From an uncultured Acidimicrobiaceae bacterium (GTDB taxonomy: Bacteria > Actinomycetota > Acidimicrobiia > Spongiisociales > SHLN01), in NCBI GenBank assembly GCA_947259275.1, contig CAMYMH010000010.1, positions 16,833 through 80,832 on the forward strand: a DNA stretch of 64,000 nt, written 5' to 3'. The translations under genes were made by a program, and so were the position numbers. Under the pieces are notes generated by a model, which saw only the letters and a program-made list of their open reading frames with translations, was not told where the DNA came from and searched no databases. This document shows, in pieces, positions 1,995 through 63,644 of the stretch (position 1 is its first letter; every line of letters begins with the position of its first letter).

Positions 1995-1995
1995 G

Positions 1996-2742: not shown

Positions 2743-5351
2743 TACGCATCACCTCCCTTCGTGACTTTTACCTTCACGTGGAATGCCTGGTCGGCCGTGT
2801 TGGTCATGTAGCCCTCGCCGGTGAAATAGATCTCGTTGGCGGAGGCTCCTTGCCCCTTGTTCTGCGGATGGGTCCACATTCCGAAGTGGTGAGGCATGCC
2901 CACGGTGTCGGGCCGGATGCCATCGCAGAAAGCAGCCGTCGTCACCAGCGACCTGGTCTCCCCGGTGATGGCGTTGTGTGATTCGACGATGACGGTGTCG
3001 CCGTCGGCGATACCGCGTTGGCGAGCCGCCTCCGGGTTCATGTCGAGGCGAGCTCCGGGTGCCAGCTCGGCCAGCATGGGAACGAAACTCGTCCGTGACT
3101 GCTTGTGTTCGATCTGGTGGAAGCTGATCAAGATCAGGTCGTAGTCCGGTGGGGAGTGGTCCATGGTCGGAGCTCGCCAGGTGGGCAGGGCCGTGTAGTC
3201 CTGCCAGTAGATCTCCTCCGCACCCTTCTCCTGCATTTGTCGTTGGGCGTCGAGCAGACTTGCTCCGTATAGGCGATGCACCGCTCCCTGGAACGGAGGA
3301 TCGTTGACGTAGCCGTACATCTTGGTGGGTGCCACCGGGCCCTTGACGAACACACCCTTGGCGGGATCCTCGAAGTAGCCGATGCCCTCGTCGATCCCCT
3401 GAGAGTGCGCCCACCGATCGAAGATGTCACGCACGTCCGGTTTCTGGTCGAGCGGAAGGGCGAACTCGGTGTCGGTGAGCTTCAACTCTTTGTTGACTAC
3501 TGACAGGTAGCCATCTTCGCCGAACAGGACGCCAATCTTCTCGCATAAATCCATGTAGATTTCGATTTCCCCGCGCGATTCGAACAGCGGTTCCATCGGG
3601 GGAATCCTGAGGGTCACGGCGTCCGTGTATTGATCGGTGGCCGAGATCGGGCCTTCGTACTTCTCGATCGTGGCCGCCGGCAGGACGACGTCGGCGAAAT
3701 AGTCGGCCGTTTCTGATAGCCAGGGGCTGACCACGGCCACGAACTTGAATATCCCATATGAGTCGAGATAGTCCTGCTGGGAGGGGAACGCGTTCAACGG
3801 GTTGACGTAGTGGAGGATGGCGACCTCGGGAAGCTCCTCGACTCCATACCGACCCGGATCCTGCATGACCTTGGCGACGATCCCGGGAAAACCGGTGTTG
3901 ATCGGGAAGTACTTGCTCTTGTTGAGCATGAAGTCATACGGGGGATCTTCGACCGTGAGCTTTTCGAACTTCGGGTAGTTCTTGTGGATCTTCCAGGTGA
4001 AGTCAGAAAGCTGGCCCCCGGCCGCGCCGACCGCCCCCACCAGCATCGGCACCATCGTCATGGCCCGGGCCGTCTGGAAACCGAGCTCCTGCTGAGCCAT
4101 GTGGTAGGCCATGATGCCGACCGGGCGGTATGGCACTTCCACTCCGTCGACGACGATGGTCGATCCGATTTGGGCGTTGGAGCCGAAGTCTTGCGCTACC
4201 TGACGGATTTGTGCTGCGGACAGGCCGGTGATGTCCGCCGCCCATTCGGGCGTGTATTGGGCGACGTGCTCCTTGAAGAGTTGAAAGCCCGTCTTGACTG
4301 GCCTGCCTTCGATCTCGTATTCCCCCTCAAGGGCGGGATCGGTCGCTTCATCCGTGCGCGTGACGCGGCCCGAGGCTTCGTCCCAGACGAGGGGGATTTC
4401 CTCGGCTTCGTCTCCCTCCCCGACGGTCTCGGTAACCGTCATCCCGTTGGCACTCACCAGATACGGACCGTTCGTGTAGGCCTTCAGGTACGGACGGTCG
4501 AGGTAATCCTGTTCGATCAGCTGATGGCACAGGGCCAATGCCATGGCCAGGTCGGTGCTGGGACGGATTGGAAGCCACGTGTCGGCGAACGGTCCGGCGC
4601 TGCGCAGACGCGGATCGAGATGAGTTATCTTCATCCCCCGTTCGCGGGCCTTGACCATGTGGCGCGGCCAGGTCAGCCAGCAGAACTTGTTGCCGCCGGC
4701 GTTCGTGATGTTCCAGCCCCACGACAACAGGTAGTTGCAGTATCGGAAGTCGGGATGGAGCACGGCGTGAGTGCCGAGCGTGTACTCCAGGGCGCGGTAT
4801 CCAGCATCCGAGCAGAAGGCACCGTGGCCCAGCTTGGAGGAGCCGATTGCCTTCACGAAGGCGTCGTCGTAGAAGTCCTTCGCTTTGCTGCGCCCTTTCT
4901 GCCACAGGACCAGCTTGGGGTCTCGGTCGCGGACCTCTTTGACTCTGTCGGCGACCATCTCCAGCGCCTCATCCCACGATGCTCGGCGCCACTCACCGGT
5001 TGTTCCCTTGTCGTTGGTCCGGACCAGCGGCCACTTGACGCGGTTGGGGTCGTAGAGCGCCTGGATCTGAGCCTGGCCCTTCGGACACAGCGTCCCTACG
5101 TTGCGTGGATTGGTCGGGTTCCCTTCGAACTTCACTACTCGGCCGTCTACGCGGCGGGCCAGCATGCCGCAGTCCTGTTTGCCTATCCAGCACGTCGTTG
5201 CGATGACGTCTTCGACCGGGCCTGCCTGGGCGGTGGTTCCGGCGGAGGCCAAAGTCTCAAGAGGTCCGAACAGAAACTTGGTGGCTACGACGCCTCCCCC
5301 GATGGCGACGGCCGAACCTTGGACGAATTTGCGCCGGGTGACCTTCGGCAT
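2742..5351 (-). CDS. Tat-exported molybdopterin oxidoreductase, catalytic subunit (Psr/Phs/Ttr-like)
   Basis: An 869-residue member of the DMSO-reductase superfamily. A twin-arginine signal (TRRKFVQ, residues 5-11, then a hydrophobic stretch) sends it outside. The Fe-S region reads TTCWIGKQDCGM...LCPKG: the usual second cysteine of the CxxCxxxC core is glycine, leaving three canonical cysteines. The segment GHGAFCSDAGY offers a cysteine as likely Mo ligand, as in polysulfide and thiosulfate reductases. The C-terminal molybdopterin-dinucleotide domain includes MNPEAARQRGI and GMPHHFGMW. It heads the structural genes. The sensor genes immediately upstream resemble the tetrathionate-sensing TtrS layout, so a sulfur oxyanion substrate is plausible, but arsenate, selenate or others remain possible. 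Confidence 0.9.
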   Translation of the reverse strand: MPKVTRRKFVQGSAVAIGGGVVATKFLFGPLETLASAGTTAQAGPVEDVIATTCWIGKQDCGMLARRVDGRVVKFEGNPTNPRNVGTLCPKGQAQIQALYDPNRVKWPLVRTNDKGTTGEWRRASWDEALEMVADRVKEVRDRDPKLVLWQKGRSKAKDFYDDAFVKAIGSSKLGHGAFCSDAGYRALEYTLGTHAVLHPDFRYCNYLLSWGWNITNAGGNKFCWLTWPRHMVKARERGMKITHLDPRLRSAGPFADTWLPIRPSTDLAMALALCHQLIEQDYLDRPYLKAYTNGPYLVSANGMTVTETVGEGDEAEEIPLVWDEASGRVTRTDEATDPALEGEYEIEGRPVKTGFQLFKEHVAQYTPEWAADITGLSAAQIRQVAQDFGSNAQIGSTIVVDGVEVPYRPVGIMAYHMAQQELGFQTARAMTMVPMLVGAVGAAGGQLSDFTWKIHKNYPKFEKLTVEDPPYDFMLNKSKYFPINTGFPGIVAKVMQDPGRYGVEELPEVAILHYVNPLNAFPSQQDYLDSYGIFKFVAVVSPWLSETADYFADVVLPAATIEKYEGPISATDQYTDAVTLRIPPMEPLFESRGEIEIYMDLCEKIGVLFGEDGYLSVVNKELKLTDTEFALPLDQKPDVRDIFDRWAHSQGIDEGIGYFEDPAKGVFVKGPVAPTKMYGYVNDPPFQGAVHRLYGASLLDAQRQMQEKGAEEIYWQDYTALPTWRAPTMDHSPPDYDLILISFHQIEHKQSRTSFVPMLAELAPGARLDMNPEAARQRGIADGDTVIVESHNAITGETRSLVTTAAFCDGIRPDTVGMPHHFGMWTHPQNKGQGASANEIYFTGEGYMTNTADQAFHVKVKVTKGGDA

Positions 5352-45615: not shown

Positions 45616-47094
45616 TCAATCAGCCGCAGCCTCCCCACCCGCCGCGGCCAGGAAATCCTCGATGACGGCAACCGCCGTCCCCTCCTCGTTGTACCTATCG
45701 AAGACCCGTTGCATAGCCTGGACCCTGCCATGCATCGCCGGGTCGGAGAGCACGCGGGCAACGTGCTGTTCGAGTCTCTCGGGCTTCTTCGTGTCCCATC
45801 CGGCGGCAACACCGAGTCCGTGGTATTCGATGCGGGCCGCGCAACCGTCCTGATCGACAAGCGACGGTGAGTACACCACCATCGGCACCCCGTAAGAGAT
45901 GCACTCGTTGATGGATGTGATCCCACCATGGTTGATGGCGCAGTCGGCGAGCTCCAGCACGTCGAGTTGGGGCGCCCAGTCCAGCAGCAGCACGTTGTCG
46001 GGAATCGGTCCCAAATCGCCCTCGGTCGCCTGGCCGCCGAGCCCGAGGACGAGGTCCCATTCGGGGCGTCGTTCGAAGGTTGCGATAACCATGCGAAGGA
46101 AGTCCGCGTCGGCCCAGTACGAGCCCAGCGAGCAATACACGAGCGGTCGCCCGCCATCGTTGGCCGACCGAGCCGCCCGGTAGGCATCCCAGCGACGCCT
46201 GCTTTCGGATTGAAGCCGGGACTCGGGCCGTTGACGGTTCACCATCGGTCCCACGTATCTGATGTTCGGGTGAGGCGTGTGGGGGAATTCCAGCTCGAAC
46301 GAGTTGAGACACAGGACGCGGAGGCGCGTATACATGAACGGACGGACCCACTCGTTTCGGTTGGTGTTTTCTTTGAGCGAGTACCCGTGAGCTTTGGCGA
46401 CCTGCTTGATGTCGGCGTAGTGGTTTGTCCCGTAGGTAACGGGACGCAGGACGTCCCCGACACCGCGCCGGCCGATCTTGTGCCGGATCCTCGCCCCCCA
46501 GGCAGCCAACCGCACCCGAATCCAGGCACGCCGAAATCGGGCCTCGCCTCGTGATGCGCCACGGGGTGGCGAGAGCTTGGAGTTGAGCGGCGGGAGGCCG
46601 GGCAGGCGAAACACGGACAACCAGTTCATGACGAGCATGGTGGGGATCTGGAGGTGGGCGGAGACGATGGTTGCGTAGTGCATCTCGAGGTCGATGAGCA
46701 GCAGGTCGGGATCCAGTGCCGTGATGGCTCGCTCGTAGTCGTCGTTGGTGATGGATCGGCGCCGGGCCCGGCGCATCGCCCGCAGGCGGGCCAGCGGATT
46801 CCCGGCACTGCGTGCCTCACGCCGAATTGATTCGTCAGATGCGAGTTGCACGAAAGCGAACCCGTGAGCCTCGACTTCATGGGAAATGTCGGCATGGCTC
46901 ATGAAGGTCACGTGGTGACCGTGATTGGCCAACCGGCGGCTCAGTTCCAGCGCAGCATTGAGCGGACTGATCAGGCCGTGAGCGACAAAGACGACGTGTG
47001 CCACCTCAGGCCGGACCGGACCGGCTGGTGCCGAGTGGGTCGGGCCCGGAGTCGCCTGCTCGTCGACCCCCGGGCGCGTCCCGACGGGTGCCAC
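45616..47094 (-). CDS. UDP-glycosyltransferase-type GT1 enzyme (MGT-like)
   Basis: Up to 492 residues (GTG 47094; a later GTG at 47004 starts directly at VAHVVFVAHG). GT-B fold: N-terminal VFVAHGLISPLNAALELSRR with the acceptor-site loop. The C-terminal nucleotide-sugar half has PLVYCSLGSYW, LLLDWAPQLDVLELADCA and INHGGITSINE, where antibiotic glycosyltransferases carry their HGG motif. In this operon it may glycosylate the peptide or a lipid carrier. It is the last gene of the leftward transcript, 23 bases after the HupE-like gene. Confidence 0.87.
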   Translation of the reverse strand: MAPVGTRPGVDEQATPGPTHSAPAGPVRPEVAHVVFVAHGLISPLNAALELSRRLANHGHHVTFMSHADISHEVEAHGFAFVQLASDESIRREARSAGNPLARLRAMRRARRRSITNDDYERAITALDPDLLLIDLEMHYATIVSAHLQIPTMLVMNWLSVFRLPGLPPLNSKLSPPRGASRGEARFRRAWIRVRLAAWGARIRHKIGRRGVGDVLRPVTYGTNHYADIKQVAKAHGYSLKENTNRNEWVRPFMYTRLRVLCLNSFELEFPHTPHPNIRYVGPMVNRQRPESRLQSESRRRWDAYRAARSANDGGRPLVYCSLGSYWADADFLRMVIATFERRPEWDLVLGLGGQATEGDLGPIPDNVLLLDWAPQLDVLELADCAINHGGITSINECISYGVPMVVYSPSLVDQDGCAARIEYHGLGVAAGWDTKKPERLEQHVARVLSDPAMHGRVQAMQRVFDRYNEEGTAVAVIEDFLAAAGGEAAAD

Positions 47095-47117: not shown

Positions 47118-48470
47118 TCAGGTCTCAGCATCCGCGAGTGCCGGCGTTGGAGTGTCCATGCGGCTCGAAAGCGGGAGCAGTCGATTGTGGTGCCGGTCGC
47201 CTCGGTAGGCGGCTGCGGCGAGGAGGTAGGCGAGGGCCACCGGGACGAGCTGGCGCGGCCACACCGAGGCTCGATCCATGATCCAATCGGTGCCGAGGCT
47301 CACGCCGAACGCTCGCTCGACGGCCCAGACGCTGGCGATCGCGATGAGGAGCACCGATCCGGCCTGCATCGACGGCAGGAAGGCTCTCGTTCGCCGCGCC
47401 AAGAAGAGGGCCGGGAAGATCAGCACGATGATGACCGCCTGACCTATCTCGATCCCGAGGTTGAATCCGAGCAGGGAGGCGACTCGCCGGCTCTGGGTCA
47501 AGCCGAGATCGGAGAGGAGGCCGGCAAATCCGAAGCCGTGTACGAGTCCAAATCCGAATGCGATCAACCACTCCTGGTTCACGAGGACCGGTCGAAGGTT
47601 GTGGAGCGCGGCCAGGATGATGGAGAAGGCGATGACTGTCTCCACCAGCGCCGGTGGGAGCTCGATGATCCCGAGCCCGCCCAGCGTAAGGGTGATCGTA
47701 TGGGCAACGGTGAACATCGTCACGATTTTGAGTACCCGCCACAGGCTGGCACCGAAGCTCGGGGACGGTTGCCAGCCGGCTGCTCGCCCAAAGATGAGCA
47801 CAGACGGAAGCACGAGAGCGAGGATGAAGAGGATGTGATCGGTGCCGATCCGAATGTGGTCCACACCAAGGGCGATGACTGCGGTTATTCCGCTCCAGAA
47901 AGACGTGTCTCCGAGATCGACGGTCTGCGTCGTGGTGCTCGCTGTATAGCGCAGGAGGGTGTCGGCTTCGTTGTTGAAGGTCCCGGAGCCGAAATCGGTA
48001 GCGATCGCGAGCAGCGCAGCCCGCTCCGGTTTCGCATGCAGGATGCCGTCGTATGTGACGACGAACTGCCTCGGGACTCCGGCGAACTCGCGGTCGACTT
48101 CGAACCCCACCAGGAGGTAGGCACCATCGAAGACTTCAAGACCCTCAAAGGTGCTGAACGCGATCGGCCACTCTGTTCCGTTGAGATCGGACATGGCGAT
48201 GTGGTCGGCGCTGTAGTCCTGGATGAGGTCCGGGTTGGCCTCGGCCCACTCTGCAGCACCGTCCGGGTCATTGGGGATATCCAGGCCCAGCACCTCGTTG
48301 AGATCCGGGACCGGGTAGTGGATCTCCCCTTCGATGCTCGAGTCGAAGATGTCGAGGTAGACGTAGGAATCCGCGAGGTTGTGGGCGGCAGCCGCCCCCG
48401 GGATGGAAAGCACGGCGAGCATCGCCGCCAGCAGCACCAGGGCGGCCCGGCCCATCAGCCGTTGGCTCAT
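47118..48470 (-). CDS. HupE/UreJ-family membrane protein with extracytoplasmic N-terminal domain
   Basis: A 450-residue protein: signal peptide (about 1-29, ending AAAAHN), an external domain of about 170 residues, then six to seven helices with the HupE hallmark histidines (ALGVDHIRIGTDHILFI; FTVAHTITLTLGGLG; FGLVHGFGFAGLL). HupE/UreJ relatives are linked to nickel or cobalt uptake, but the long form with an external domain is widespread and uncharacterised. It overlaps the PPTase stop by four bases, so it is co-expressed with NRPS genes. No urease or hydrogenase is nearby. Confidence 0.85.
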   Translation of the reverse strand: MSQRLMGRAALVLLAAMLAVLSIPGAAAAHNLADSYVYLDIFDSSIEGEIHYPVPDLNEVLGLDIPNDPDGAAEWAEANPDLIQDYSADHIAMSDLNGTEWPIAFSTFEGLEVFDGAYLLVGFEVDREFAGVPRQFVVTYDGILHAKPERAALLAIATDFGSGTFNNEADTLLRYTASTTTQTVDLGDTSFWSGITAVIALGVDHIRIGTDHILFILALVLPSVLIFGRAAGWQPSPSFGASLWRVLKIVTMFTVAHTITLTLGGLGIIELPPALVETVIAFSIILAALHNLRPVLVNQEWLIAFGFGLVHGFGFAGLLSDLGLTQSRRVASLLGFNLGIEIGQAVIIVLIFPALFLARRTRAFLPSMQAGSVLLIAIASVWAVERAFGVSLGTDWIMDRASVWPRQLVPVALAYLLAAAAYRGDRHHNRLLPLSSRMDTPTPALADAET

Positions 48471-49234
48471 CCCTCTAGCTCCGATTCGCTCGTTGGGAGT
48501 GCGGGGCCATCCCGGTAGCCGGATCGACTCACTTCACCACTAGCCGCCGTCTTGGGCAGTATGACCGCGGTGAGCACGAGATCTCCGGACCGGACGGATG
48601 TGATCGCAAAGGTGCGGTGCGACGGATAATCACGGTCGAGGCCGTCGGCGAGGCGGCCCACGAAGCCCGATGCGGTCGGTGCGAGGGAGGCCCGTTCGAA
48701 CCCGAAGTAGGATCCGATTCGGGGGAAGAACGCCTTGAACACCGACTCTTTGGCGGAGAACAACGCCAACATCGCGGCCTCTCTTTCCGTGGCTTCGAGA
48801 TTCCCGAGCCAGCTTCGCTCTTCGGGTCGGGGCACGTGATCCCAGAGCTCGGGGACGTTGCGGAGCTCTTCGAGATCGACGCCGACGCCATCGGTGTCCT
48901 CCGCCGGTGCGACCAGGGCAACGCCGAAGCCCGCCGCGTGCGAGATCGCTCCGGTTGCGCCGTCGGGCCACAGTGGCTCCCGGCCGGAACCCGAGAGAAT
49001 CGGCCCGCGATCGAAGTGGATCGCTCGCAGCGCTGCGTGAGCTGCCGCCCGGCCCCGGGAGAAGGCTTCCCTTCTGGCCGGCACCATCGAGGACGAAAGT
49101 AGGTCCTCCTCGCCCGACTCGACGACGGGAAGGGGTTCGGAGGGGCGGGAAACGGCGAACGCGGCAAAGGTTGGGAGATCCGGTGGCGGGGCGAGGTCTA
49201 CGGCCGCGGCCGCTCGATTCTTGAGCGCAGTCAC
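48467..49234 (-). CDS. 4'-phosphopantetheinyl transferase (EntD/Sfp type)
   Basis: About 255 residues from GTG 49234 (VTALKNRAAAAVDLAPPPDL); an ATG at 49279 would add 15 residues. Core motifs: RGRAAAHAALRAI, GAISHAAGFGVALVAP, the magnesium site GVGVDLEEL, and FSAKESVFKAFFP. It converts apo- to holo-carrier proteins by adding the CoA phosphopantetheine arm, and should serve the four carrier domains of this cluster. I prefer the GTG because a TATTAT -10-like box (49270-49275) lies between it and the ATG, and GGAAGG precedes the GTG at good spacing. Confidence 0.88.
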   Translation of the reverse strand: MTALKNRAAAAVDLAPPPDLPTFAAFAVSRPSEPLPVVESGEEDLLSSSMVPARREAFSRGRAAAHAALRAIHFDRGPILSGSGREPLWPDGATGAISHAAGFGVALVAPAEDTDGVGVDLEELRNVPELWDHVPRPEERSWLGNLEATEREAAMLALFSAKESVFKAFFPRIGSYFGFERASLAPTASGFVGRLADGLDRDYPSHRTFAITSVRSGDLVLTAVILPKTAASGEVSRSGYRDGPALPTSESELEG

Positions 49235-49269
49235 ACTCCCCGCCTTCCTGTCAAACAAGATCGGGGATG

Positions 49270-49275
49270 ATAATA
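49270..49275 (-). promoter_or_regulatory. Candidate -10 box (TATTAT) for the PPTase-HupE-GT transcript
   Basis: On the leftward strand TATTAT matches five of six bases of the -10 consensus, 36 bases before the preferred GTG. A convincing -35 at normal spacing is not seen. The gap 49235-49451 to the adenylation gene otherwise holds nothing I recognise. Confidence 0.3.
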
Positions 49276-49451
49276 GCATTCCGCAGTTACCCTGCGTGTC
49301 GGAAATCGCGCACAGGGTGGTCGTTTACCTGGGGGCGGAGGAAGCGAGTGGTTGACCGCTGATGTCGCCGGGTCGGGACCTCCCCACATGGACGGTTGGT
49401 TCCTCGAGCGGCTCGTCGTGATCGGCGCGTGCGCTGTCACCAACGCTGACT

Positions 49452-51555: not shown

Positions 51556-51804
51556 ATGTCCATTCGACGCCGCAAGATCGTTGACTACGTGAGCGCTCAG
51601 CTGCTCGTCGACCCCGAGCTGGGATTAGACGAACACGAAGAGATCCTGGCGACCGGCCGGATCGACTCGATGAGCGTGATGCGGCTGGTCTCCTTCATCA
51701 AAGAAGAGTTCTCGATCACGATCCCCAACGAGGACCTGGTGGTCGACAATTTCAAATCGGTTGACGCAATCGACGCGTACTTGAGCAGGTACGAGAGTGT
51801 CTAG
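51556..51804 (+). CDS. Free-standing peptidyl/acyl carrier protein
   Basis: An 82-residue acidic four-helix carrier protein. The phosphopantetheine serine is S38 in GRIDSMSVMRL; the preceding EEILATGRID and following EEFSITIPNEDLV are typical of small ACPs/PCPs. It is the first gene of the rightward operon, its stop overlapping the GTG of the C-A-T synthetase by 8 bases. It is therefore the likely donor to that protein's first condensation domain, charged by the stand-alone A domain. Confidence 0.9.
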   Translation: MSIRRRKIVDYVSAQLLVDPELGLDEHEEILATGRIDSMSVMRLVSFIKEEFSITIPNEDLVVDNFKSVDAIDAYLSRYESV

Positions 51805-54800
51805 GCACCTGGGTCTGACCAGCGCTCAGCGGCTGATGCTGGCCGGCCAGAACCTGAACCCGGACGATCCGCTCTACAACTCGGCGTTCCTGTTCGTCAT
51901 CAACGGTGCGATCGACGTCGCCGCCTTCGTGGAGGCGTTCGCTCGTCTGGTCGCCGACGCAGAGCCGTTGCGCACGGTGATCAAGAACCCCACGGGCGAC
52001 GCACGGCAAGAGGTTCTCGAGATGACCGAGTTCGATCTGCCGATCATCGACTTCGCCGAGGACGCCGACCCCGAAGCTGCGGCGATGGCGTGGGCCAAGG
52101 AAAAGGCGAAGCAGACCCTCGACATCGAGCAGGCGACCTTCGACTCGGCCCTCCTGAAGCTGGCGGACGACCGCTTTGCTTGGTATCTGAACCAGCACCA
52201 CCTGGTGACCGACGCTAAGAGTTTCGAGGTGGTGTTCCGACATATGGAAGAGCTCTACGTGGCAGCCCGCTCGGGAACAACTGAGCACATTGACTCAATC
52301 CCGTCCTTTTCTCCCTACGTCGACTACGAGTCACAGAGGGCCCAGAGCAGGGAGCCCATTTCCAACCTTGCGGTGGTTCCGCCGCCGCTCTACGGACGGC
52401 CGGTGCAGGCCGGCGGAACCGAAAACGAACGAATTGAGATCGAGCTTTCCCAACGCATGAGCGATGACCTCCGACAGCTGCTCGGCCGGCCAGGCAATCA
52501 GGCCCTCACACGTGACCTCGGCCAACTCCAGATCTTTGCCACCGCCACGTTTGCCTTTCTGAAGCGAGTGAGCGGCCAGGAGACGATCACCATCGTGGCA
52601 CCTGCCCACAATCGGGTAAACCGCCAGTTCGCATCCTCGGCCGGACTGTTCATCGAGCTCTTTCCCATCGAGGTTACGACCGACGGCGACGAGACCTTCG
52701 CCTCGCTCCACCACAGAGTTCAGGACGCCAGCATCGAGTACTTGCGACTCGCTCAGCCGGGTCACGCCGACCCCGAGGTCAACCGGCGCGTCAATGTGGT
52801 TCTGAACTACCTCACAATGGAGTTCGTGAGCTTCGCCGGGAATCCTGTGACTACCCGCTGGCTGCACCCGGACAGCGTTGACGGCCATCATCAGCTGCGA
52901 GTCCAGGTGTTTGACTTCGATCGGACCGGCCGGTTCACCCTGGCGTTCGACGTAGCGACCGGTGTTCTGGGCGAGCGACAGAGGGTCGCGCTTGCCGCTC
53001 ACTTCGAGACCATGCTCGAGGCCATGGTCGAGGATTGGGACAGGCCCATCGAAGAGGTCGACCTGCTGGGTGATGAGGAACGGCTCGAGGTACTGGCGCT
53101 CGCCGCCGGCGATCCCGTGGGTGACGAGCCCACGGACGTAGTGGCAATGTTCTTGAAACGGGCGGCAAACATGCCCGCTTCGGTGGCGATTCAGGAAGAC
53201 GACACCTGCTGGACGTACGCCGACCTGGATCGTGCGACCGAGCGGCTGGCCCAAAGCATCGAACCGCAATCGGTGATCGGAGTGGCGCTCCCCCGTTCGG
53301 CCGGGGCAGTGATTGCCATGCTTGCGACCTTGCGAGCGGGGGCGGTATTCGTTCCGATCGACCCGGCCTGGCCGTTGGAGCGAATCCGCTACCTGGCGAC
53401 CGACGCCGGCTGCTCCACGATCATCGCGGACGCGCCGCTCGATGTTGATATCCCGATCGTCACGCTCGATGAGTTGCCGTCGACGACGCCTACGGCCAGG
53501 CGGCCGGCTGCGGCCACGCCCGAGGACCTGGCCTACATCCTGTACACATCGGGCTCTACCGGCGAACCGAAAGGGGTCATGATCGAGCGCGGCTCGTTGG
53601 CCAACTACATCTCGTGGGCCGCTGGCTTCTACGGTCCTGCCCTCACATTCCCGCTCTTCACCCCACTCACGTTCGACCTGACGATCACGTCGATCTTCGT
53701 TCCGCTGACCTCGGGAGGCTCGATTGTGGTCTATCCGTCGACCACTGACGCAGCCGACCTCGCAGTTCTCGACGTGTTTGCCGAGGACGCGGTCGACATC
53801 GTCAAGCTCACGCCGTCCCATCTTGCGTTGCTGGTCGACCGCCACCTGACCGGCACCCGCATTCGCCAGCTGATCCTCGGGGGCGAGGACTTGACCACGG
53901 CAGTTGCCGCCGGCGTCTTCGAGCAGTTCGATGGACGGCTCACAATCCACAACGAATACGGCCCCACGGAAGCCACGGTGGGCTGCGTGGTCCACACGTA
54001 CGACCCGGAAGCCGATACCGATGCGAGCGTGCCCATCGGCAGACCGATCGACGGCGCGCAGGCGTATGTCATCGACGCAGCGGGACAGCCCGTACCGCCC
54101 GGGGTCCCGGGTGAGCTCTGGATCGCAGGAGTCGGGCTCGCCCGCGGCTACGCCCGCCGTCCCGACCTGACCAAGGAGCGATTCGTGCCGGGTCCCGCAA
54201 TCGATGAGGACCGGGCTTACCGAACCGGGGACATCGCCCGCGTCCGACCCTCCGGGACGATCGAGTACCTCGGACGCCGAGATGACCAGGTGAAGATCAA
54301 GGGCATCCGGGTGGAGCTGGGAGAGATTGAATCGGCGCTGGCATCACATCCAGGAGTCACTGCGGTGGCAGCCCGCCTCTGGGAGCACAGCGACGCCGAG
54401 GCGTCCGAAGACCTGATCTATTGCACTCGCTGCGGTCTCGCCTCCGACTATCCGGGAGTCTCGTTCGATGCCAATCGGGTGTGCAACGATTGCCGGGCGT
54501 TCGACGAGTACAGCGTCAAGGCGCGCGTGTATTTCAAGCCCGAAGCCGAACTCGCCACCCTCTTGACGTCGCAGCGGGGCAGCCGCGGCAACTACGACTG
54601 CATCGCACTGCTGAGCGGCGGAAAGGACAGCACGTACGTGCTGTGCCGATTGGTCGACATGGGGCTGCGCGTTCTGGCGGTCACCCTCGATAACGGGTAC
54701 CTGTCGGATCAAGCGCACGGCAACATCGGACGAGTCGTCGAGGCCCTCGGCGTTGATCACCGATACCTGACCACGCCGGCAATGAACGAGATCTTCGTGG

Positions 54801-55963
54801 ACAGCCTCCAGCGGCACGCCAACGTCTGCAACGGCTGCTTTAAGACGATCTACACACTCAGCATGCAGACGGCGCTGGACGAGGACATCCCATACATCGT
54901 CACCGGCCTCTCCCGAGGACAGTTCTTCGAGACGCGCCTCACCGCCGACCTGTTCACGGAACTAACCGTCAGCTCGAACCAGATCGACGCCAATGTCTTG
55001 GCAACCCGCAAGGCATACCACCGGGTCGACGACGCCGTTCATCGGCTGCTCGACGTCTCGATGTTCGACGACGATGACGTGTTTGAGGCCGTCCAGTTCG
55101 TCGACTTCTATCGATACATCGATGTCGGTCTCGAGGAACTGTACGCCTACTTGGACGAGCGTGTCCCGTGGTCGCGACCCACCGACACCGGGCGCTCCAC
55201 GAACTGTCTGATCAACGACGTCGGCATCTACTACCACCGCAAGGTCCGGGGTCATCACAACTACGCACTGCCCTACAGCTGGGACGTCCGCATGGGGCAT
55301 AAGACGCGCAACCAGGCCCTCGAGGAGCTGGATGACGATATCGACGTGGCCGAGGTGGCGCGCATCCTCGACGAGATCGGCTTCCCCGACGACGTCACCG
55401 GCTCCGAAGGGGGACGAAGGTTGGTCATGTATTACGCAGCGCCGGCCGAGATCCCCGTGCCCCAGCTCAAGGAGCACATGGCGTCCACGCTTCCGCCGCA
55501 GCTCGTCCCGAGCAGATTCGTGCGGCTGGACGCCATTCCCCTCACCCGGAACGGCAAGGTGGACCGCGATGCCCTGCCCTCTCCAGACCATCAGCGGCCG
55601 GAGATGGAGACGACGTTCGTTGCCCCGCGATCCGACAATGAGATCATCCTCACCCGCATCTGGGAGCAAGTTCTCGGTGTCGCCGGCATCGGGGTTCGCG
55701 ACCGGTTCTTCGATCTCGGCGGAGACTCCATCATGGCTATCCAGGTGGTTGCGCAGGCGAGCCGGGCCGGACTCGCCATCACCCTGCCCGACCTGTTTGA
55801 GGCCCTCACGGTGGAGAGGTTGGCGGAGGCGGCCGACCGCTCGCCGGCCGTACCCGCCGAGCCCGATCGGTCGGAAGCGGCCACCTCCGGCCTGGCCACG
55901 CTCGGCGCCGAGGAGCTCGAGCGACTGGCGGATGTGCTGAAGGCCGGCGAAGACGGGCTATGA
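51797..55963 (+). CDS. NRPS C-A-T module with a PP-loop ATPase embedded in the A domain
   Basis: A 1388-residue synthetase from GTG 51797. The condensation domain (about 5-435) has H134-H135-LVT-D139-A. The A domain starts about 450: A3 YTSGSTGEPKG at 583, A5 NEYGPTE at 719, A8 GRRDDQVKIKGIRVELGEIE at 826-845. About 340 residues of another protein then interrupt it (see 54392-55417) before strand RRLVMYYAAP (1207) and A10 NGKVDRDAL (K1254). The T domain has S1311 in LGGDSIMAIQV. Pocket code D-L-T-K-I-G-E-V-G-K closely matches published asparagine codes. It should condense the starter with an Asn-derived residue. Confidence 0.9.
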   Translation: MSRHLGLTSAQRLMLAGQNLNPDDPLYNSAFLFVINGAIDVAAFVEAFARLVADAEPLRTVIKNPTGDARQEVLEMTEFDLPIIDFAEDADPEAAAMAWAKEKAKQTLDIEQATFDSALLKLADDRFAWYLNQHHLVTDAKSFEVVFRHMEELYVAARSGTTEHIDSIPSFSPYVDYESQRAQSREPISNLAVVPPPLYGRPVQAGGTENERIEIELSQRMSDDLRQLLGRPGNQALTRDLGQLQIFATATFAFLKRVSGQETITIVAPAHNRVNRQFASSAGLFIELFPIEVTTDGDETFASLHHRVQDASIEYLRLAQPGHADPEVNRRVNVVLNYLTMEFVSFAGNPVTTRWLHPDSVDGHHQLRVQVFDFDRTGRFTLAFDVATGVLGERQRVALAAHFETMLEAMVEDWDRPIEEVDLLGDEERLEVLALAAGDPVGDEPTDVVAMFLKRAANMPASVAIQEDDTCWTYADLDRATERLAQSIEPQSVIGVALPRSAGAVIAMLATLRAGAVFVPIDPAWPLERIRYLATDAGCSTIIADAPLDVDIPIVTLDELPSTTPTARRPAAATPEDLAYILYTSGSTGEPKGVMIERGSLANYISWAAGFYGPALTFPLFTPLTFDLTITSIFVPLTSGGSIVVYPSTTDAADLAVLDVFAEDAVDIVKLTPSHLALLVDRHLTGTRIRQLILGGEDLTTAVAAGVFEQFDGRLTIHNEYGPTEATVGCVVHTYDPEADTDASVPIGRPIDGAQAYVIDAAGQPVPPGVPGELWIAGVGLARGYARRPDLTKERFVPGPAIDEDRAYRTGDIARVRPSGTIEYLGRRDDQVKIKGIRVELGEIESALASHPGVTAVAARLWEHSDAEASEDLIYCTRCGLASDYPGVSFDANRVCNDCRAFDEYSVKARVYFKPEAELATLLTSQRGSRGNYDCIALLSGGKDSTYVLCRLVDMGLRVLAVTLDNGYLSDQAHGNIGRVVEALGVDHRYLTTPAMNEIFVDSLQRHANVCNGCFKTIYTLSMQTALDEDIPYIVTGLSRGQFFETRLTADLFTELTVSSNQIDANVLATRKAYHRVDDAVHRLLDVSMFDDDDVFEAVQFVDFYRYIDVGLEELYAYLDERVPWSRPTDTGRSTNCLINDVGIYYHRKVRGHHNYALPYSWDVRMGHKTRNQALEELDDDIDVAEVARILDEIGFPDDVTGSEGGRRLVMYYAAPAEIPVPQLKEHMASTLPPQLVPSRFVRLDAIPLTRNGKVDRDALPSPDHQRPEMETTFVAPRSDNEIILTRIWEQVLGVAGIGVRDRFFDLGGDSIMAIQVVAQASRAGLAITLPDLFEALTVERLAEAADRSPAVPAEPDRSEAATSGLATLGAEELERLADVLKAGEDGL
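54392..55417 (+). other. Inserted PP-loop (adenine-nucleotide alpha-hydrolase) domain, N-acetyl-sugar-amidotransferase type
   Basis: Residues about 866-1207 of the C-A-T synthetase. Zinc-ribbon-like pairs C876/C879 and C896/C899 are followed by the PP-loop S940-GGKDS, then TLDNGY and CNGC (C1011/C1014). It ends in a helical tail with WDVRMGHKTRNQALEELDDD. This whole order matches WbpG/PseA-type N-acetyl-sugar amidotransferases, which adenylate an acetamido group and replace its oxygen with nitrogen. The domain sits in the A8-A9 loop, the place where methyltransferase domains are inserted in other NRPSs. All catalytic motifs look intact. Confidence 0.82.
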
Positions 55964-58900: not shown

Positions 58901-60453
58901 CCGCGATCTGGTCCGATCTGCTCGGTCTCGAGGCCGTTGGCGTGCGGGACGACTTCTTCGCGCTCGGTGGTGACTCGATCATGAGTATCCGGATGATCTC
59001 CCGGGCGCGTCAGGCCGGTGTCCATATTGCGCCGGGACAGATCACGAGCCATCCCACCATCGAGCAGCTCGCAATGGCCTCGGACGCCGCTGTGCCCACT
59101 GGTGAGGCAGTATCGGGACCGGTACCCCTCGGACCCATTCAGCAGTGGTTCTTCGAGATGGCCCTTGCCGTGCCCGACCACTGGAACCAATCAAGCCTCT
59201 TCTCGATCGACGTCGAAGTTGACGAAGCGGCGCTCGAACGGGCGCTGCAGGCGTGCGTGCAGCATCACGACATGCTCCGGGCACGATTCGGGCACCGGGA
59301 CGGCGCATGGGAGCAACTGGTCGATCCGGACGCACTGGTCAAGCTCGAAGTCACCGACGAAGGGGCCGACGTCGATGAGACCGTGGCCGCTTGCCAACGG
59401 AGCCTCGACCTCGGAGCAGGCCCCGTGATCCAGGCAACGCTCATCTTGCGGCCATCGACCGAACCGGATCTGCTGTTCCTCGCCGTACACCATCTCGTCA
59501 TCGACGTCGTCTCGTGGGCGATCCTCGTCGACGATCTGGAGCGAGCGTATTTTCAGGCGTCGACGGGCGCAGACCTCGAACTTGCGCCGCGGTCGACTTC
59601 ATACCGGGACTGGGTTTCCCACCTGGCCTCCGGCGAATGGGCGGAACGGGAAGGCCACTTCTGGAGGACCGATCGCAGTGGGTCGTCGGAAGGCCCTCCC
59701 GAGTCGTGGGGGACGGAGGCATCCCGCCAGACGGTGACCGTCGAACTCGAGGCAGACGCCACCGGATTGCTGCTGCGAGAAGCAAACGACGCCTTCCGAA
59801 CCCGTCCCGACGAACTCATGGTTGCCGCTCTGGCACCGGTGCTTGGATCCCAGCCGGGGGAAAGAGTGACTCTGGCGCTCGAGCGCCACGGTCGGCCCTC
59901 GGACATCCCCGGGGTCGACCTGTCACGGACGATCGGCTGGTTCACGGCCCAATACCCGGTCACGTTGACCTCGACCGATAGTGACGATGCCGGCCTCATC
60001 AAGGCCACCAAGGAGACGCTGCGGAGTGTTCCCAACGGAGGCGTTGGCTACGGGGCGTTGCGCTACCTCCACCAGCTTCCCGAGCTGGTTCGCCAAGCCG
60101 AACCGGCGTACATCTTCAACTACATCGGTCACACCTCTACCGACGGTGGCGAGCTCTTCCGCCGGCTCTCGTGGTGCGACGACTCGTCCCGTCATCCGAA
60201 CAACGGGCGGGCGCACCGCATCGAGATAGTGGCTGTGGTCCGGGATGGCCAACTCGCCGTCGATTGGCACTTCAGCAGCCTCCACGACGATCGTGAGACG
60301 GTGGAGGCGTTGGCCCGGGCCCACCTCGAGGGCCTTCGACGACTCGTGTCGCACTGCATGGCCGACGACAGTGGCGGCCTGACTCCCTCCGATTTCCCTG
60401 CGGCCGGGCTGGATCAGAACGAGCTCGACCGATTCCTGGACGGCCTCGCATGA
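55960..60453 (+). CDS. NRPS module C-A-T-E
   Basis: A 1497-residue synthetase. The C domain has H147-H148-LIA-D152. The A domain has A3 HTSGSTGRPKG at 612, A5 NEYGPTE at 750, GRADVQLKVRGHRIE (A8) and NGKVDSGSL (A10). The T domain has S1006 in LGGDSIMSIR. The epimerisation domain (about 1050-1480) has H1177-H1178-LVI-D1182 followed by VVSW, plus YIFNYIGHTS, both typical of E domains. The A-domain code reads about D-S-A-G-I-A-E-V-W-K, which I cannot assign. It should add a residue and invert it to the D form. It overlaps both neighbouring synthetase genes by four bases. Confidence 0.92.
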   Translation: MTGRPGLENVADAYPLTPMQEGMLFHALAEPGSDVFENQRTIEVEGELDLAAFRAAWERLVERYDVLRTAFVWDGLDRPLQVVRRSAALEWHEHDWVHLTPDEQSQRFRLLQGEDMQRGFDLQAAPLMRMTMIRMREDGWRWLWTSHHLIADAWSVQVLLDELQAIYAELRGGPAAQLPGPSSYQGFVRSVLARDAARDEAFWRPRLAGFTAPHHLEVPGLPPAPNAAGHRAVTVELDAGSSTALRAAAAAEGVTLNSAVLAAWAVQLSRWTRETDVVFGTTTAGREVTVSGVERAVGLFINTLPIRLAVDGKESVADFWRTAQRHQQELYPFEHSSLAAVQRWSDAPAGDPLFESIFVFGNRPAPALEDTTGLILRSVEFTEHSNYPLAILVEPGGSIQLRFIYDSARFAHGAVESLASQTINLLAQFAHSPGMRLAQLERLPAAQLGQVQAFETGPPLDPTDETIHQLIARKGSERPDAPAVVFQGQVLTYHQLEEAAGRVAVQLQAAGVGPNRPVGLYLRRSVELIVGMLGILKAGGAYVPLDPDYPAGHIQHLLEGDGIDIVLTDESRRDDVPAVATVVTIEGDGPAEAGSAPPVVAPNADHLAYVIHTSGSTGRPKGVMVSHRNLVQSTRARAVHYRRPVGRFLLLSSFAFDSSVAGIFWTLSSGGTLVLPAPGLEHDINRLLALAATQRITHLLGLPALYEVMLERIDAGELDSLEVAIVAGEACPPRVLAAHQSRLPQTELHNEYGPTEATVWCTVHRAEQTDRGAPLPIGRPIAGTTVHLLDDHGHRVPAGFIGELWVGGAGVTGGYLNRPDLTAERFATVRLDNEDRRLYRTGDLACFRADDGVLMFLGRADVQLKVRGHRIEPEAVEETLRSHTTIAEAAVAGRSTDGRAATQLIGYVVFEGDPIDPAILRDYLRDRLPPFMVPDVFVPIDKIPRLPNGKVDSGSLPDPQDHVQRDGTQIAPRTDRERLLAAIWSDLLGLEAVGVRDDFFALGGDSIMSIRMISRARQAGVHIAPGQITSHPTIEQLAMASDAAVPTGEAVSGPVPLGPIQQWFFEMALAVPDHWNQSSLFSIDVEVDEAALERALQACVQHHDMLRARFGHRDGAWEQLVDPDALVKLEVTDEGADVDETVAACQRSLDLGAGPVIQATLILRPSTEPDLLFLAVHHLVIDVVSWAILVDDLERAYFQASTGADLELAPRSTSYRDWVSHLASGEWAEREGHFWRTDRSGSSEGPPESWGTEASRQTVTVELEADATGLLLREANDAFRTRPDELMVAALAPVLGSQPGERVTLALERHGRPSDIPGVDLSRTIGWFTAQYPVTLTSTDSDDAGLIKATKETLRSVPNGGVGYGALRYLHQLPELVRQAEPAYIFNYIGHTSTDGGELFRRLSWCDDSSRHPNNGRAHRIEIVAVVRDGQLAVDWHFSSLHDDRETVEALARAHLEGLRRLVSHCMADDSGGLTPSDFPAAGLDQNELDRFLDGLA

Positions 60454-62882
60454 CCAGCGACCCCACGCTCGCCTCATGGGCGGGTTCGCCCGAACCGTCG
60501 AGCGCCCGGGCCAACGTGCAAGACGTGCTCCCCCTCCTGCCAAACCAGCTGGCCCTGCTTCTGTTTCGCGATCGGGCCGATGTGGATCCGGGATTCCTCC
60601 AGGTCAGATACCGGTTGGAGGGTCCGCTGGACGTCGTCCGTTACGAGCAGGCCTGGCAGGCCGTCATCGACCGCCATCCGACGCTCCGCTCTTCGATTCG
60701 ACCTCGACCGGATGGCAACCCGCTGGCGATCGTGTGGCGTAGTGCGCCCCTGGCCGTGCAGGTCGAGGACTGGCGATCCGAGCCTGATCAGCAGGCCCGG
60801 ATGGAGCGCCTGCTGCAATCCGATCGAGCCCAGGGGCTCGACCTCACGGAGGCACCTGCGATGCGGCTCCGGCTCATCCGGACGCAGGATGAGGCCTACG
60901 AGGCGGTGTGGACCTGCCACCACCTGTACGTGGACGGATGGTCGTCCGCCATTGTGCTCGAAGACGTGATGGCGCTGTACCGCGACGCTGCCGCGGGGAA
61001 CGCCCTCCAACCGGCTCCACCGTCCGACGGGCTTCGCTCGTATGTCGCATGGGCATCCAGCCAGGACGACGATCAGCTCCGCCAGTACTGGAGCCGCACC
61101 CTGTCCGGGTACGGCGGCAATCCTCCGCTGCGCATCGGATCGGTCGACGGACAATCCGGGTTTGGCGAGCTCACGGTGGAGATCGCAGACGAAATGTTGG
61201 AGCGTATCTCGTCGGTCGCATCGGACCTCAACGTGCCGGCCGCCGTTTTGTTCCAGGCCGCGTGGGCGCTGGTGCTGGGTCTCCTCACTGGTGAGGAAGA
61301 CGTTGCGTTCGGGACGACGGTGTCGGGCCGCAACGCAGATGTCCCGGGTATGGAGCGGCTTGTCGGGTACTTCTCCAATGCCGTGCCCGTCCGTGTCGAG
61401 ATCGATCGTTCTGCAGACCTTGCGACTTGGCTCGGCGGATTCCGGAACCGGCAATTCGAGATGGCCCAATTCGAGCACGCCTCTCTCGCCGACATCCATC
61501 GTTGGAGCGACGTGCCGGGACATCGAGCGATATTCGAGACGTTCGTTGTCATAGAGAACTTCCTGGCAGGGGAATCCACCGCAGACGGGGTCGTCCAAAG
61601 CGACTTCCGAAGCGGCCTCACGACGGCGTACCCGATCACCCTCGCCGTAGGAATGGCAACCCCCTGGTTCCTCCAGCTGCGATTCGACCGCCGGCGCTGC
61701 TCTGAGGAGGGTGCGCGAACGCTCATCGATCAGCTGGTGCGGGTGGTCTTCGCCGCCGTTGACAACCCGCGCGAACGGGTCGGCACGCTGGTGGATCTTG
61801 CCGGCGACGCGCTGTCCGGACTTGCATCCCTCACCGAGGTGGAAGGGCACGGACAGCCCCCGGTCGGAGAGAGGAGCCGCAGCAACACCGAACGGCGACT
61901 GACGGCCATCTGGTGCCGTCATCTCGATCTCACCGACATCGGCATCGATGCGGACTATTTCGATCTCGGAGGAACGTCGCTCGGTGCAGTGCGGCTGTTC
62001 GGCTCGATCGAGGAAGAGTTCGGCATCAATCTTCCCCTCAGCACTCTGCTCACCCACCCGACGATCGAACTTCTGGCCCAGGTCATCGCGGGCGCAGAGC
62101 CCGGGGCCGCAGTGGGTTCGGAGTGTCTCGTGCCAATCCAGCCGAACGGCACCCGAGCGGCCATCGCCGCCGTGCACGGCGGTGGCGGCGAGGTCTACAT
62201 CTATCGCGAGCTGGCCGAGCTGCTCGGCACCGATCAGCCGTTGTACGGACTGCAGCCGGTCGGCATCGACGGCGTGACGAAACCGCTCGACTCGGTACCC
62301 GAGATGGCGTCGCGCTACGTCAAAGAACTCCGGCAGGTGCAGCCGGAGGGCCCTTACCGTTTGATCGGCTTCTGCTTCGGGGGATCGGTCTGTCTCGAGA
62401 TGGCGGCACAGCTCGAGGACATGGGTCAAGAGGTTGACTTCATCGGCGTGATCGACGGCGGGCTGCCCCTCGACCAAGCCCGACACGAGACGGAGCTGGA
62501 GCGCCTCAAATACCTCGTGCGGAGCCGAGGCCTGGGCGGCACCGCCCGGGCGGCGTGGCGGCGCGTCCGCTGGCGAGGCGAGGAGTGGCGGAAGGCCTCG
62601 ATTCGGCGGATCAAGGGTGAGGACCAAGCAAGGAATGTCGCAGTGGCGTTGGCGAATGACCGGGCGTTCAATTCGTTCGAACCCCGGCCGTCATCGGCCC
62701 TGATCACGCTCATACGGTCAGCGGAGCAACAGGTCGGCGAGGGCAAGGACTGGGACTTCGCCTGGGACGACTACACGCCGCGCCTTCAAACGGAAACCGT
62801 CGATGCTCGACATCAGACCCTCTTCGAAGGATCGGCCGTGCAGGCGCTGGCGGCCATCATTCGGCGATCGATCCCCCGCTGA
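60450..62882 (+). CDS. NRPS terminal module C-T-TE lacking an A domain
   Basis: An 810-residue synthetase. The C domain (about 25-450) has H157-H158-LYV-D162-G. The T domain has S510 in LGGTSLGAVRL. The thioesterase (about 560-810) begins PIQPNGTRAAIAAVHGGGG and has the nucleophile elbow GFCFGG, placing C642 where most thioesterases have serine; the catalytic His is probably in DARHQTLF. No adenylation domain lies between C and T, so this carrier must be charged in trans. The TE releases the peptide by hydrolysis or cyclisation. Stop at 62882 ends the operon. Confidence 0.92.
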   Translation: MTSDPTLASWAGSPEPSSARANVQDVLPLLPNQLALLLFRDRADVDPGFLQVRYRLEGPLDVVRYEQAWQAVIDRHPTLRSSIRPRPDGNPLAIVWRSAPLAVQVEDWRSEPDQQARMERLLQSDRAQGLDLTEAPAMRLRLIRTQDEAYEAVWTCHHLYVDGWSSAIVLEDVMALYRDAAAGNALQPAPPSDGLRSYVAWASSQDDDQLRQYWSRTLSGYGGNPPLRIGSVDGQSGFGELTVEIADEMLERISSVASDLNVPAAVLFQAAWALVLGLLTGEEDVAFGTTVSGRNADVPGMERLVGYFSNAVPVRVEIDRSADLATWLGGFRNRQFEMAQFEHASLADIHRWSDVPGHRAIFETFVVIENFLAGESTADGVVQSDFRSGLTTAYPITLAVGMATPWFLQLRFDRRRCSEEGARTLIDQLVRVVFAAVDNPRERVGTLVDLAGDALSGLASLTEVEGHGQPPVGERSRSNTERRLTAIWCRHLDLTDIGIDADYFDLGGTSLGAVRLFGSIEEEFGINLPLSTLLTHPTIELLAQVIAGAEPGAAVGSECLVPIQPNGTRAAIAAVHGGGGEVYIYRELAELLGTDQPLYGLQPVGIDGVTKPLDSVPEMASRYVKELRQVQPEGPYRLIGFCFGGSVCLEMAAQLEDMGQEVDFIGVIDGGLPLDQARHETELERLKYLVRSRGLGGTARAAWRRVRWRGEEWRKASIRRIKGEDQARNVAVALANDRAFNSFEPRPSSALITLIRSAEQQVGEGKDWDFAWDDYTPRLQTETVDARHQTLFEGSAVQALAAIIRRSIPR

Positions 62883-62883
62883 C

Positions 62884-63644
62884 ACGACCAACCGCAAACC
62901 GGCTCCGAAGACCGTCCACAACATCCATCTCACGCTGCATCGTGCACTCGAGGATGCCGTCCATCAAGATCTGGCCCCCGCAACCCTGCATCTGGATCCC
63001 GCCGCGCACCGAAAGCTGGCCCCGAGATGATGACTTAGGACCCGAACCAGCTGCGCGCGTTCTTCGACCAGAGCACCGGGGATCGGCTGTTCCCGCTGTG
63101 GCGGCTCGCAGCCATGTCGGGGATGCGCCGCGGAGAAATACTTGGACTGCGATGGGACGGTCTCGACGCCTCGGGATCGACAACCACCGTTACTCGCCAG
63201 TGGAAGCCTGGCGAGCATGGCTTTGTCCTGGGACCGCCGAAGACCGACCGCGGCCGACGCACGGTCGATATAGATGCCGAGACGCTGGCCGTGCTCAAGG
63301 GGTGGCGGCGCAGTCAACATGAGGAGCGGATGGTCTTCGACGGCGTATGGCTCGATACCGGGCACGTGTTCACTCGCAAGGATGGAAGGGCGCACGACCC
63401 CGACGTCGTATTGCGGTATGACCGTCTTGTCCGACAAGCCGGTCTACCCCGAGTCAGGTTTCGTGGCTTACGGCGCACGCATGCGACGCTTCTGCTCTTG
63501 GCCGGCGTTCCCCCGCACGTCGTGTCGATGCGGCTTGGCCATCGCAGCGTTGCGTTCACACTTCAACAGTACGCCCACGTGCTGCCGCAGCAGCAGGCGG
63601 ACGCCGTCGAACGGCTGGCCACGCGCCTACTCGGTGACTCATAG
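62884..63644 (+). pseudogene. Decayed tyrosine recombinase (phage/ICE-type integrase)
   Basis: An N-terminal core-binding remnant (PAPKTVHNIHLTLHRALEDA, about 62902-62961) is in one frame and ends at a stop. The continuation DPNQLRAFFDQSTGDRLFPL (from 63039) is in another frame, immediately after an in-frame TAG at 63036. The catalytic part (from about 63114) keeps RRGEI, LGHRS and the tyrosine region QQYAHVLP. Its HxxR box reads RGLRRTHATLL, with arginine where the catalytic histidine is normally found. Frameshift, nonsense codon and lost histidine mark it as inactive. It lies 260 bases from a tRNA-fMet fragment, the usual place for an integrase next to its att site. Confidence 0.83.

What the first reader, a model, noticed from the sequence alone, without database searches (positions are those of the whole stretch)
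54392..55417. A PP-loop amide-activating enzyme spliced into an NRPS adenylation domain
The C-A-T synthetase carries a complete PP-loop domain (four zinc-ribbon-like cysteines, SGGKDS, CNGC, GHKTR tail) like N-acetyl-sugar amidotransferases, located between A8 and A9, the loop used by embedded methyltransferases in other NRPSs. I know of no described NRPS with this insertion. Known relatives convert an acetamido group to an acetamidino group; related PP-loop enzymes make nitriles or thio-groups. An assembly-line domain that turns a carrier-bound amide into amidine, thioamide or nitrile would be a new kind of NRPS tailoring.
Basis: partly seen in the sequence, partly recalled or inferred. Interest (0 to 1): 0.95.

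Follow-up and report, generated by a model that had tools for sequence, protein, structure and literature searches.

The report
Nitrile-making domain inside a peptide synthetase
A peptide-assembly enzyme in this bacterium carries, inside its predicted asparagine-selecting domain, the same kind of extra ATP-binding-motif domain already known from the synthesis of the antibiotic cystobactamid, where it makes nitriles; here it likely turns the amide of bound asparagine into a nitrile, so the part is a known kind, in a gene neighbourhood that recurs in several bacterial phyla and whose product is unknown to me.

Summary
In detail: ORF 51797-55963 encodes C-A-T with a complete ~342-residue PP-loop domain between A8 and A9. 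The novelty claim is wrong. This is the AMDH (aminomutase/amide dehydratase, alpha-ANH-like) domain described in CysH (cystobactamid) and AlbIV (albicidin); CysH dehydrates carrier-bound L-Asn to beta-cyanoalanine in vitro (PMC7966384). The insert is 55.8% identical (184 of 330) to the AMDH domain of a CysH-like protein in a cystobactamid-type cluster. The A-domain code is Asn-type here and in every homologue fully readable (119 of 121 rows; 79 of 82). Most likely reaction: ATP-dependent dehydration of Asn to beta-cyanoalanine. Added here: (1) besides a zinc-type Cys4, a CXXC-C trio is invariant, the pattern that binds [4Fe-4S] in LarE, which would explain the published brown colour of CysH; (2) in the capped list of 79 loci nearest to the window, 68 are in-line modules with a C domain, often behind a stand-alone A plus carrier pair, with HupE/UreJ and TonB-receptor genes nearby. 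New member of a known kind, with a testable mechanistic idea.

The parts
51797..55963 (+). NRPS 1: C-A(AMDH)-T, 1388 aa
51803..53083 (+). Condensation domain (residues 3-429)
   Evidence: Pfam PF00668
53156..54370 (+). Adenylation core up to A8 (residues 454-858), Asn-type code DLTKIGEVG
   Evidence: PF00501; TIGR01733 ends at 858; code (meaning of the code recalled; the CysH paper states that AMDH homologues lie in A domains predicted Asn-specific)
54392..55417 (+). AMDH / alpha-ANH-like PP-loop insert (residues 866-1207; TIGR03573 match 874-1189)
54422..54493 (+). Zinc-type tetracysteine C876, C879, C896, C899
   Evidence: 121 of 121 each; 82 of 82, but C896 81 of 82; like the Zn-binding Cys4 of LpNASAT (PMC10607449)
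54614..54631 (+). PP-loop SGGKDS (940-945)
54827..54838 (+). CNGC (C1011, C1014), first two cysteines of the CXXC-C trio
   Evidence: 121 of 121 each; 62 of 62 each; aligned by phmmer with CYNC of LarE 8cnz
55205..55207 (+). C1137, third cysteine of the CXXC-C trio (in DTGRSTNC)
   Evidence: 120 of 120 without a gap; 62 of 62
55376..55558 (+). A-domain C-terminal subdomain with A10 (residues 1194-1254)
   Evidence: PF13193
55649..55831 (+). Thiolation domain (residues 1285-1345)
   Evidence: PF00550
55960..60453 (+). NRPS 2: C-A-T plus a second condensation-fold domain, read as E from recalled motifs
   Evidence: two Condensation stretches
60450..62882 (+). NRPS 3: C-T-TE
51556..51804 (+). Stand-alone carrier protein, 82 aa
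   Evidence: PF00550 26.1 bits
49452..51026 (-). Stand-alone adenylation enzyme, code DLLYLALVC (prolyl-type, recalled)
   Evidence: PltF prolyl ligase 6o6e/7thq E 3e-104, but LgrA scores higher
48467..49279 (-). Phosphopantetheinyl transferase
47118..48470 (-). HupE/UreJ_2 membrane protein, recurrent neighbour of AMDH modules
45616..47094 (-). UDP-glycosyltransferase-like, recurrent neighbour (14 of 80 loci, window included)

Best explanation
The insert belongs to the AMDH domain family of cystobactamid synthesis, and in this module it likely uses ATP to dehydrate carrier-bound L-asparagine to beta-cyanoalanine, so that a nitrile-bearing residue would be passed down the assembly line. Steps: (a) the A domain, by its code, is predicted to load L-Asn on the module's own T domain; (b) the PP-loop would adenylate the side-chain amide oxygen to an AMP-imidate (inferred from the proposals for QueC and ArtA); (c) AMP would leave and the nitrile form, a dehydration shown for CysH but not here; (d) the CXXC-C cysteines would hold a [4Fe-4S] cluster near the PP-loop (inferred), as in LarE and TtuA; (e) the upstream stand-alone A enzyme and carrier would supply a proline-type starter to the first C domain (predicted). 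No CysJ-like hydroxylase was found in the window, its genome or the 79 related loci; in cystobactamid, loss of CysJ shifts the domain towards dehydration.
Against: No assay of this protein exists. CysH also makes isoasparagine, and in delta-cysJ strains the Asn and isoAsn products were the two major ones, so the product could be isoAsn or a mixture. TIGR03573 is under its cut-off. The proline code is recalled, the window lacks the clustered prolyl-carrier dehydrogenase of many relatives, and the PDB search ranks LgrA above PltF. The CysJ search used one query sequence. The window ends at the contig end, so a missing gene downstream cannot be excluded.
Confidence: 0.68

Rival explanations
1. 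Same AMDH domain, but its main job here is isomerisation: carrier-bound Asn becomes isoasparagine, possibly through a cyclic imide- or nitrile-like intermediate, and the nitrile is a by-product.
For: CysH makes isoAsn-linked products in vivo and these are lost when the AMDH domain is deleted; without CysJ, isoAsn and Asn products were the two major ones (PMC7966384). The domain is homologous over its whole length.
Against: In cystobactamid the efficient isomerisation follows hydroxylation by CysJ; no CysJ relative was found near 79 related modules, in the window or in its genome. Without CysJ the isoAsn to Asn ratio dropped six- to eightfold in the paper.
Confidence: 0.24
2. The domain makes an amidine or thioamide of Asn, as its sugar-amidotransferase or thiolase relatives would suggest.
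For: Nearest fold is N-acetyl sugar amidotransferase; CXXC-C is the signature of sulfur-transferring LarE and TtuA.
Against: CysH gives -18 Da with only ATP and Asn. No glutaminase, HisF, cysteine desulfurase or sulfur carrier among the window genes annotated or the 8 of 13 recurrent families annotated by one representative each. The other neighbours of the loci were not annotated.
Confidence: 0.06
3. The insert is a structural remnant without catalysis.
For: None beyond the lack of an assay.
Against: PP-loop and trio cysteines invariant, purifying selection, confident fold.
Confidence: 0.02

Closest known systems
AMDH domain of CysH (cystobactamid NRPS), PMC7966384
   Different: CysH is a stand-alone A-AMDH-T that hands its residue over through CysB and works with CysJ and CysQ; here the module is in-line with its own C domain and no CysJ relative was found
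Alpha-ANH-like domain of AlbIV (albicidin), PMC8949500
   Same: 342-residue extension with SGGKD, Asn as preferred substrate, beta-cyanoalanine in the product (review text); scan row 56%
   Different: Stand-alone A-T; locus not opened here
LapB (lapcin), PMC8837603
   Same: Described as a homologue of the Asn-installing cystobactamid and albicidin proteins (passage)
   Different: Sequence not seen; product assumed to keep plain Asn
N-acetyl sugar amidotransferase, TIGR03573 and 8wex
   Different: Insert scores below the family cut-off; family members free-standing; CXXC after the PP-loop in only 1 of 5 over-cut-off members looked at
LarE and TtuA [4Fe-4S] PP-loop sulfur transferases
   Same: Fold of the PP-loop core; CXXC-C order after SGGXDS
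   Different: Sulfur insertion; free-standing; no Asn loading; spacing to the third Cys is longer here (123 against 77 residues in T. maritima LarE)
QueC and ArtA nitrile synthetases
   Different: Different subfamilies; not part of an NRPS
TioS-type interrupted A domains (MT inserts)
   Same: A domain interrupted by another domain (5wmm matched); A8-A9 as the usual site is stated in PMC8949500
   Different: Methyltransferase, not PP-loop

Membership tests
AMDH / alpha-ANH-like NRPS domain | Nested in an A domain between A8 and A9 or before T | tested here: met
AMDH / alpha-ANH-like NRPS domain | SGGKD ATP-binding motif | tested here: met
AMDH / alpha-ANH-like NRPS domain | Host A domain of Asn type | tested here: met
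   Code DLTKIGEVG; meaning of the code recalled
AMDH / alpha-ANH-like NRPS domain | Full-length homology to CysH AMDH | tested here: met
AMDH / alpha-ANH-like NRPS domain | Seven core motif regions defined in the CysH paper's supplement | not tested
AMDH / alpha-ANH-like NRPS domain | Dehydrates or isomerises carrier-bound Asn | not testable with these tools
   needs assay
N-acetyl sugar amidotransferase (TIGR03573) | Score over curated cut-off 203.2 | tested here: not met
   120.7 and 125.5 bits
N-acetyl sugar amidotransferase (TIGR03573) | Acts on acetamido sugar with ammonia from a glutaminase (recalled) | not testable with these tools
   no glutaminase family among the annotated neighbours
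LarE/TtuA-type [4Fe-4S] PP-loop enzymes | CXXC-C after the PP-loop | tested here: met
LarE/TtuA-type [4Fe-4S] PP-loop enzymes | Bound [4Fe-4S] cluster | not testable with these tools
   model gives no cofactor; CysH reported brown
QueC (PF06508) | Pfam gathering score over the PP-loop part | tested here: met
   26.1 bits against 22, residues 935-1008 only
QueC (PF06508) | Canonical C(x)8CxxCxxC zinc motif (PMC13329287) | tested here: not met
   cysteines are spaced CxxC-x16-CxxC and CxxC-x122-C (positions)

The most novel reading that the evidence does not exclude
AMDH domains are iron-sulfur enzymes: an NRPS domain that pairs PP-loop adenylation of an amide with a three-cysteine [4Fe-4S] cluster to make nitriles. 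Its main natural home may not be gyrase-inhibitor synthesis but an initiation cassette (stand-alone A, carrier, C-A-AMDH-T, with prolyl-carrier dehydrogenase, HupE/UreJ and TonB-receptor genes in many members) that makes an undescribed metal-handling nitrile peptide; the A-plus-carrier pair sits directly upstream of the module in eight phyla among the loci sampled.
Probability: 0.3. Interest if true: 0.75.

Novelty: new member of a known kind. Interest (0 to 1): 0.45.

Why it matters
The headline claim (a new kind of NRPS tailoring) falls, because the domain was proposed for albicidin (2015, as cited in PMC8949500) and shown to act in CysH in 2021. What remains matters in two ways. The CysH paper left the AMDH mechanism and the protein's brown colour unexplained; the invariant CXXC-C trio gives a direct, cheap test of a [4Fe-4S] cofactor. 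And among the loci sampled, which are the 80 nearest to the window of 327 confirmed, the in-line C-A-AMDH-T module within a recurring gene set outnumbers the stand-alone form that was studied, so its product is worth isolating.

Tried and rejected
Amidine or thioamide formation: set low for lack of partner genes among those annotated and by the CysH precedent. Membership in TIGR03573: below cut-off. CXXC-C as a general NASAT trait: only 1 of 5 over-cut-off NASATs has a CXXC after the PP-loop (the earlier alignment had lost two of the five, L104 and L107, through strand handling). Rooting the AMDH tree with NASATs: the NASAT branches are near 10 changes per column, so the root and the order 'in-line before stand-alone' are not decided; the nine rows labelled stand-alone lie in three places of that tree, although treekit, which did not count the 72 ungrouped rows, gave one change. 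In that tree L059, a short frame without C, was labelled in-line. Proline starter from the PDB search: inconclusive, LgrA (424.9 bits) ranks over PltF (352.8); codes of the stand-alone A enzymes vary between loci, so the starter need not be the same everywhere. Own-genome search for the prolyl-carrier dehydrogenase: best 36% identity, one of 13 hits. Paper searches for the neighbouring gene set: no listed title concerned it, and one search returned no paper; PMC12971057 on peptide metallophores has no occurrence of the six terms tried. Viral, plasmid, phage and E. coli collections were not searched. Caveats: the 79 genome loci were found by patterns that include SGGKDS[TS]Y and DTGRSTNC, so those letters, C1137 among them, are conserved there by construction; the 121 rows were cut at SGG[KR]DS, and A2 is 61 of the 120 fragments listed. 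One search listed 120 of 2159 proteins, 120 of 571, 80 of 327 loci: all capped towards the window. L074 fell out of the gene-order count because its frame was not recovered there.
Full report
1. What is there. The window's ORF 51797-55963 (+) encodes a 1388-residue NRPS. Pfam gives C (3-429), A (454-785), a QueC-type PP-loop piece (935-1008), the A C-terminal subdomain (1194-1254) and T (1285-1345). NCBIfam finds TIGR03573 over 874-1189 at 120.7 bits, under its cut-off of 203.2. A search of the window's genome (G000) with this family gave this one match.

2. It is a known domain. A paper search on cyanoalanine and NRPS led to the CysH paper (PMC7966384; abstract, outline and passages seen). 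CysH carries a domain inserted in its Asn-activating A domain. Incubated with L-Asn, CysH gains +96 instead of +114, i.e. dehydration to beta-cyanoalanine; without the domain it does not. With the hydroxylase CysJ, isoasparagine-type linkers arise instead. The authors named it AMDH, noted SGGKD, reported a dark brown protein and an unknown mechanism, and found numerous homologues, all in A domains predicted Asn-specific. A review (PMC8949500, section 4.1 read) describes the albicidin counterpart as a 342-residue alpha-ANH-like extension.

3. Membership test. In the phylum group of a Myxococcota genome, 3 of 195 genomes have the insert at E 1e-40, one of them the centre genome itself. The other two, unnamed, carry it in open frames of 1036 and 1004 residues. 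In one (L099) Pfam finds next to it TauD, a bimodular NRPS with TE, an O-methyltransferase and a TE; in the other (L098) a pabAB-type synthase and a C-A NRPS. This fits the cystobactamid genes named in the passages (CysF, CysG, CysH, CysJ, CysK); the pabAB and TE parts are matched from recall. The window's insert is identical at 184 of 330 positions (55.8%) to this CysH-type AMDH; the A cores agree at 43%. All eight cysteines align. The window insert is an AMDH domain.

4. Asn link. The nine-position specificity code is DLTKIGEVG, the Asn type (recalled). Among 121 rows (window plus the 120 proteins listed) 119 have a full code, all DLTK[IV]GE[VI]G; one is partly readable and agrees, one is unreadable. 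Among 82 rows (79 genome loci, two CysH types, window) 79 are readable and all are Asn-like, one of them with S for T. Of 55 stand-alone-A-sized rows from these loci 44 are readable and none shows this code (the other 11 are gapped, or are short AMDH frames).

6. A cofactor hint. Besides the Zn-type Cys4 shared with LpNASAT (PMC10607449), C1011, C1014 (121 of 121) and C1137 (120 of 120) are invariant (also 62 of 62 each in A2, and 82 of 82, where C1137 lies inside a search pattern). The Cys4 has one exception in 82 at C896 and a few in fragments; C935 varies (79 of 82). The order SGGKDS, CXXC, distant C is that of LarE, where the three cysteines bind a [4Fe-4S] cluster, as three do in TtuA (PMC9283937); phmmer aligns CNGC with CYNC of the LarE structure 8cnz (E 4e-4). 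The CysH authors looked for CxxCxxxC and found none; this pattern is different and would explain the brown colour. Of five over-cut-off NASATs only one has a CXXC after the PP-loop. The cluster is inferred, not shown. Of the 39 papers listed only three hold the word AMDH (the CysH paper, its correction, the review), and searches listed no title on a cluster in AMDH; these are listings of open-licence papers only.

7. Context. Of 79 loci from the capped genome scan (80 nearest of 327; X. albilineans row left out), 68 have a C domain in the same frame as the AMDH, 9 of these also a downstream E-like domain; 11 have none, 3 of which are cut by the contig end. Of 59 in-line loci with at least 2.5 kb upstream, 42 have a stand-alone carrier within 400 bp, 41 a stand-alone A enzyme within 1.5 kb and 34 both; 44 have a HupE/UreJ_2 gene, 32 a TonB-type receptor, 27 an acyl-CoA-dehydrogenase relative and 21 an ornithine-cyclodeaminase relative. 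The 34 with both lie in eight phyla by the labels (34 by Actinomycetota, Acidobacteriota, Planctomycetota, Bacteroidota, Cyanobacteriota, Chloroflexota, Balneolota, Pseudomonadota together); AMDH rows as a whole lie in 13. A representative dehydrogenase scores best with PigA (379.5 bits) and RedW (320.3), prolyl-carrier dehydrogenases, both under cut-off. The window shares the stand-alone A, carrier, HupE/UreJ_2 and glycosyltransferase genes but not the dehydrogenase. A CysJ query found nothing in the 79 loci, the window or its genome, while it finds the L098 copy at 85%. A pyrrole or proline starter and a metal-related role are hypotheses from this gene set. In the window's class, 8 of 296 genomes sampled have the insert at E 1e-40, the window's own included.

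8. Verdict. Observation confirmed; PP-loop assignment right; novelty claim wrong. New member of a known kind, in an in-line arrangement that is the commoner one among the loci sampled. Dehydration to beta-cyanoalanine is the most likely reaction (0.68), isomerisation the main rival (0.24).

Noticed in passing
window 47118-48470 (-): A HupE/UreJ_2 membrane protein gene recurs beside AMDH modules (48 of 80 loci, window included), with TonB-type receptor genes in 33 of 80; suggests a metal-related peptide.
   Followed up: partly
L008:4397-5530, L058:4380-5531 and relatives; L031:3105-4208: PigA/RedW-like dehydrogenase (35 of 80 loci) and ornithine-cyclodeaminase-family genes (21 of 80) accompany the stand-alone A and carrier in many loci, pointing to a proline-derived, perhaps pyrrole, starter; absent near the window's module.
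   Followed up: partly
window 63114-63644 (+): Phage-integrase-family fragment just downstream of the NRPS genes, close to the contig end, which is the window end.
   Followed up: no
L028:11496-11960 (family of 24 loci): Small protein, His-rich in this representative and without a Pfam match, between the AMDH gene and the TonB-type receptor.
   Followed up: no
window 687-5351 (-): Molybdopterin oxidoreductase, 4Fe-4S dicluster protein and NrfD-like membrane protein in a row.
   Followed up: no
L063, L065, L067, L071, L081: Microvirga and Bradyrhizobium loci with stand-alone A-AMDH-T modules next to dehydrogenase-family genes and genes that I read as PPTase, unlike the cystobactamid arrangement.
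   Followed up: no
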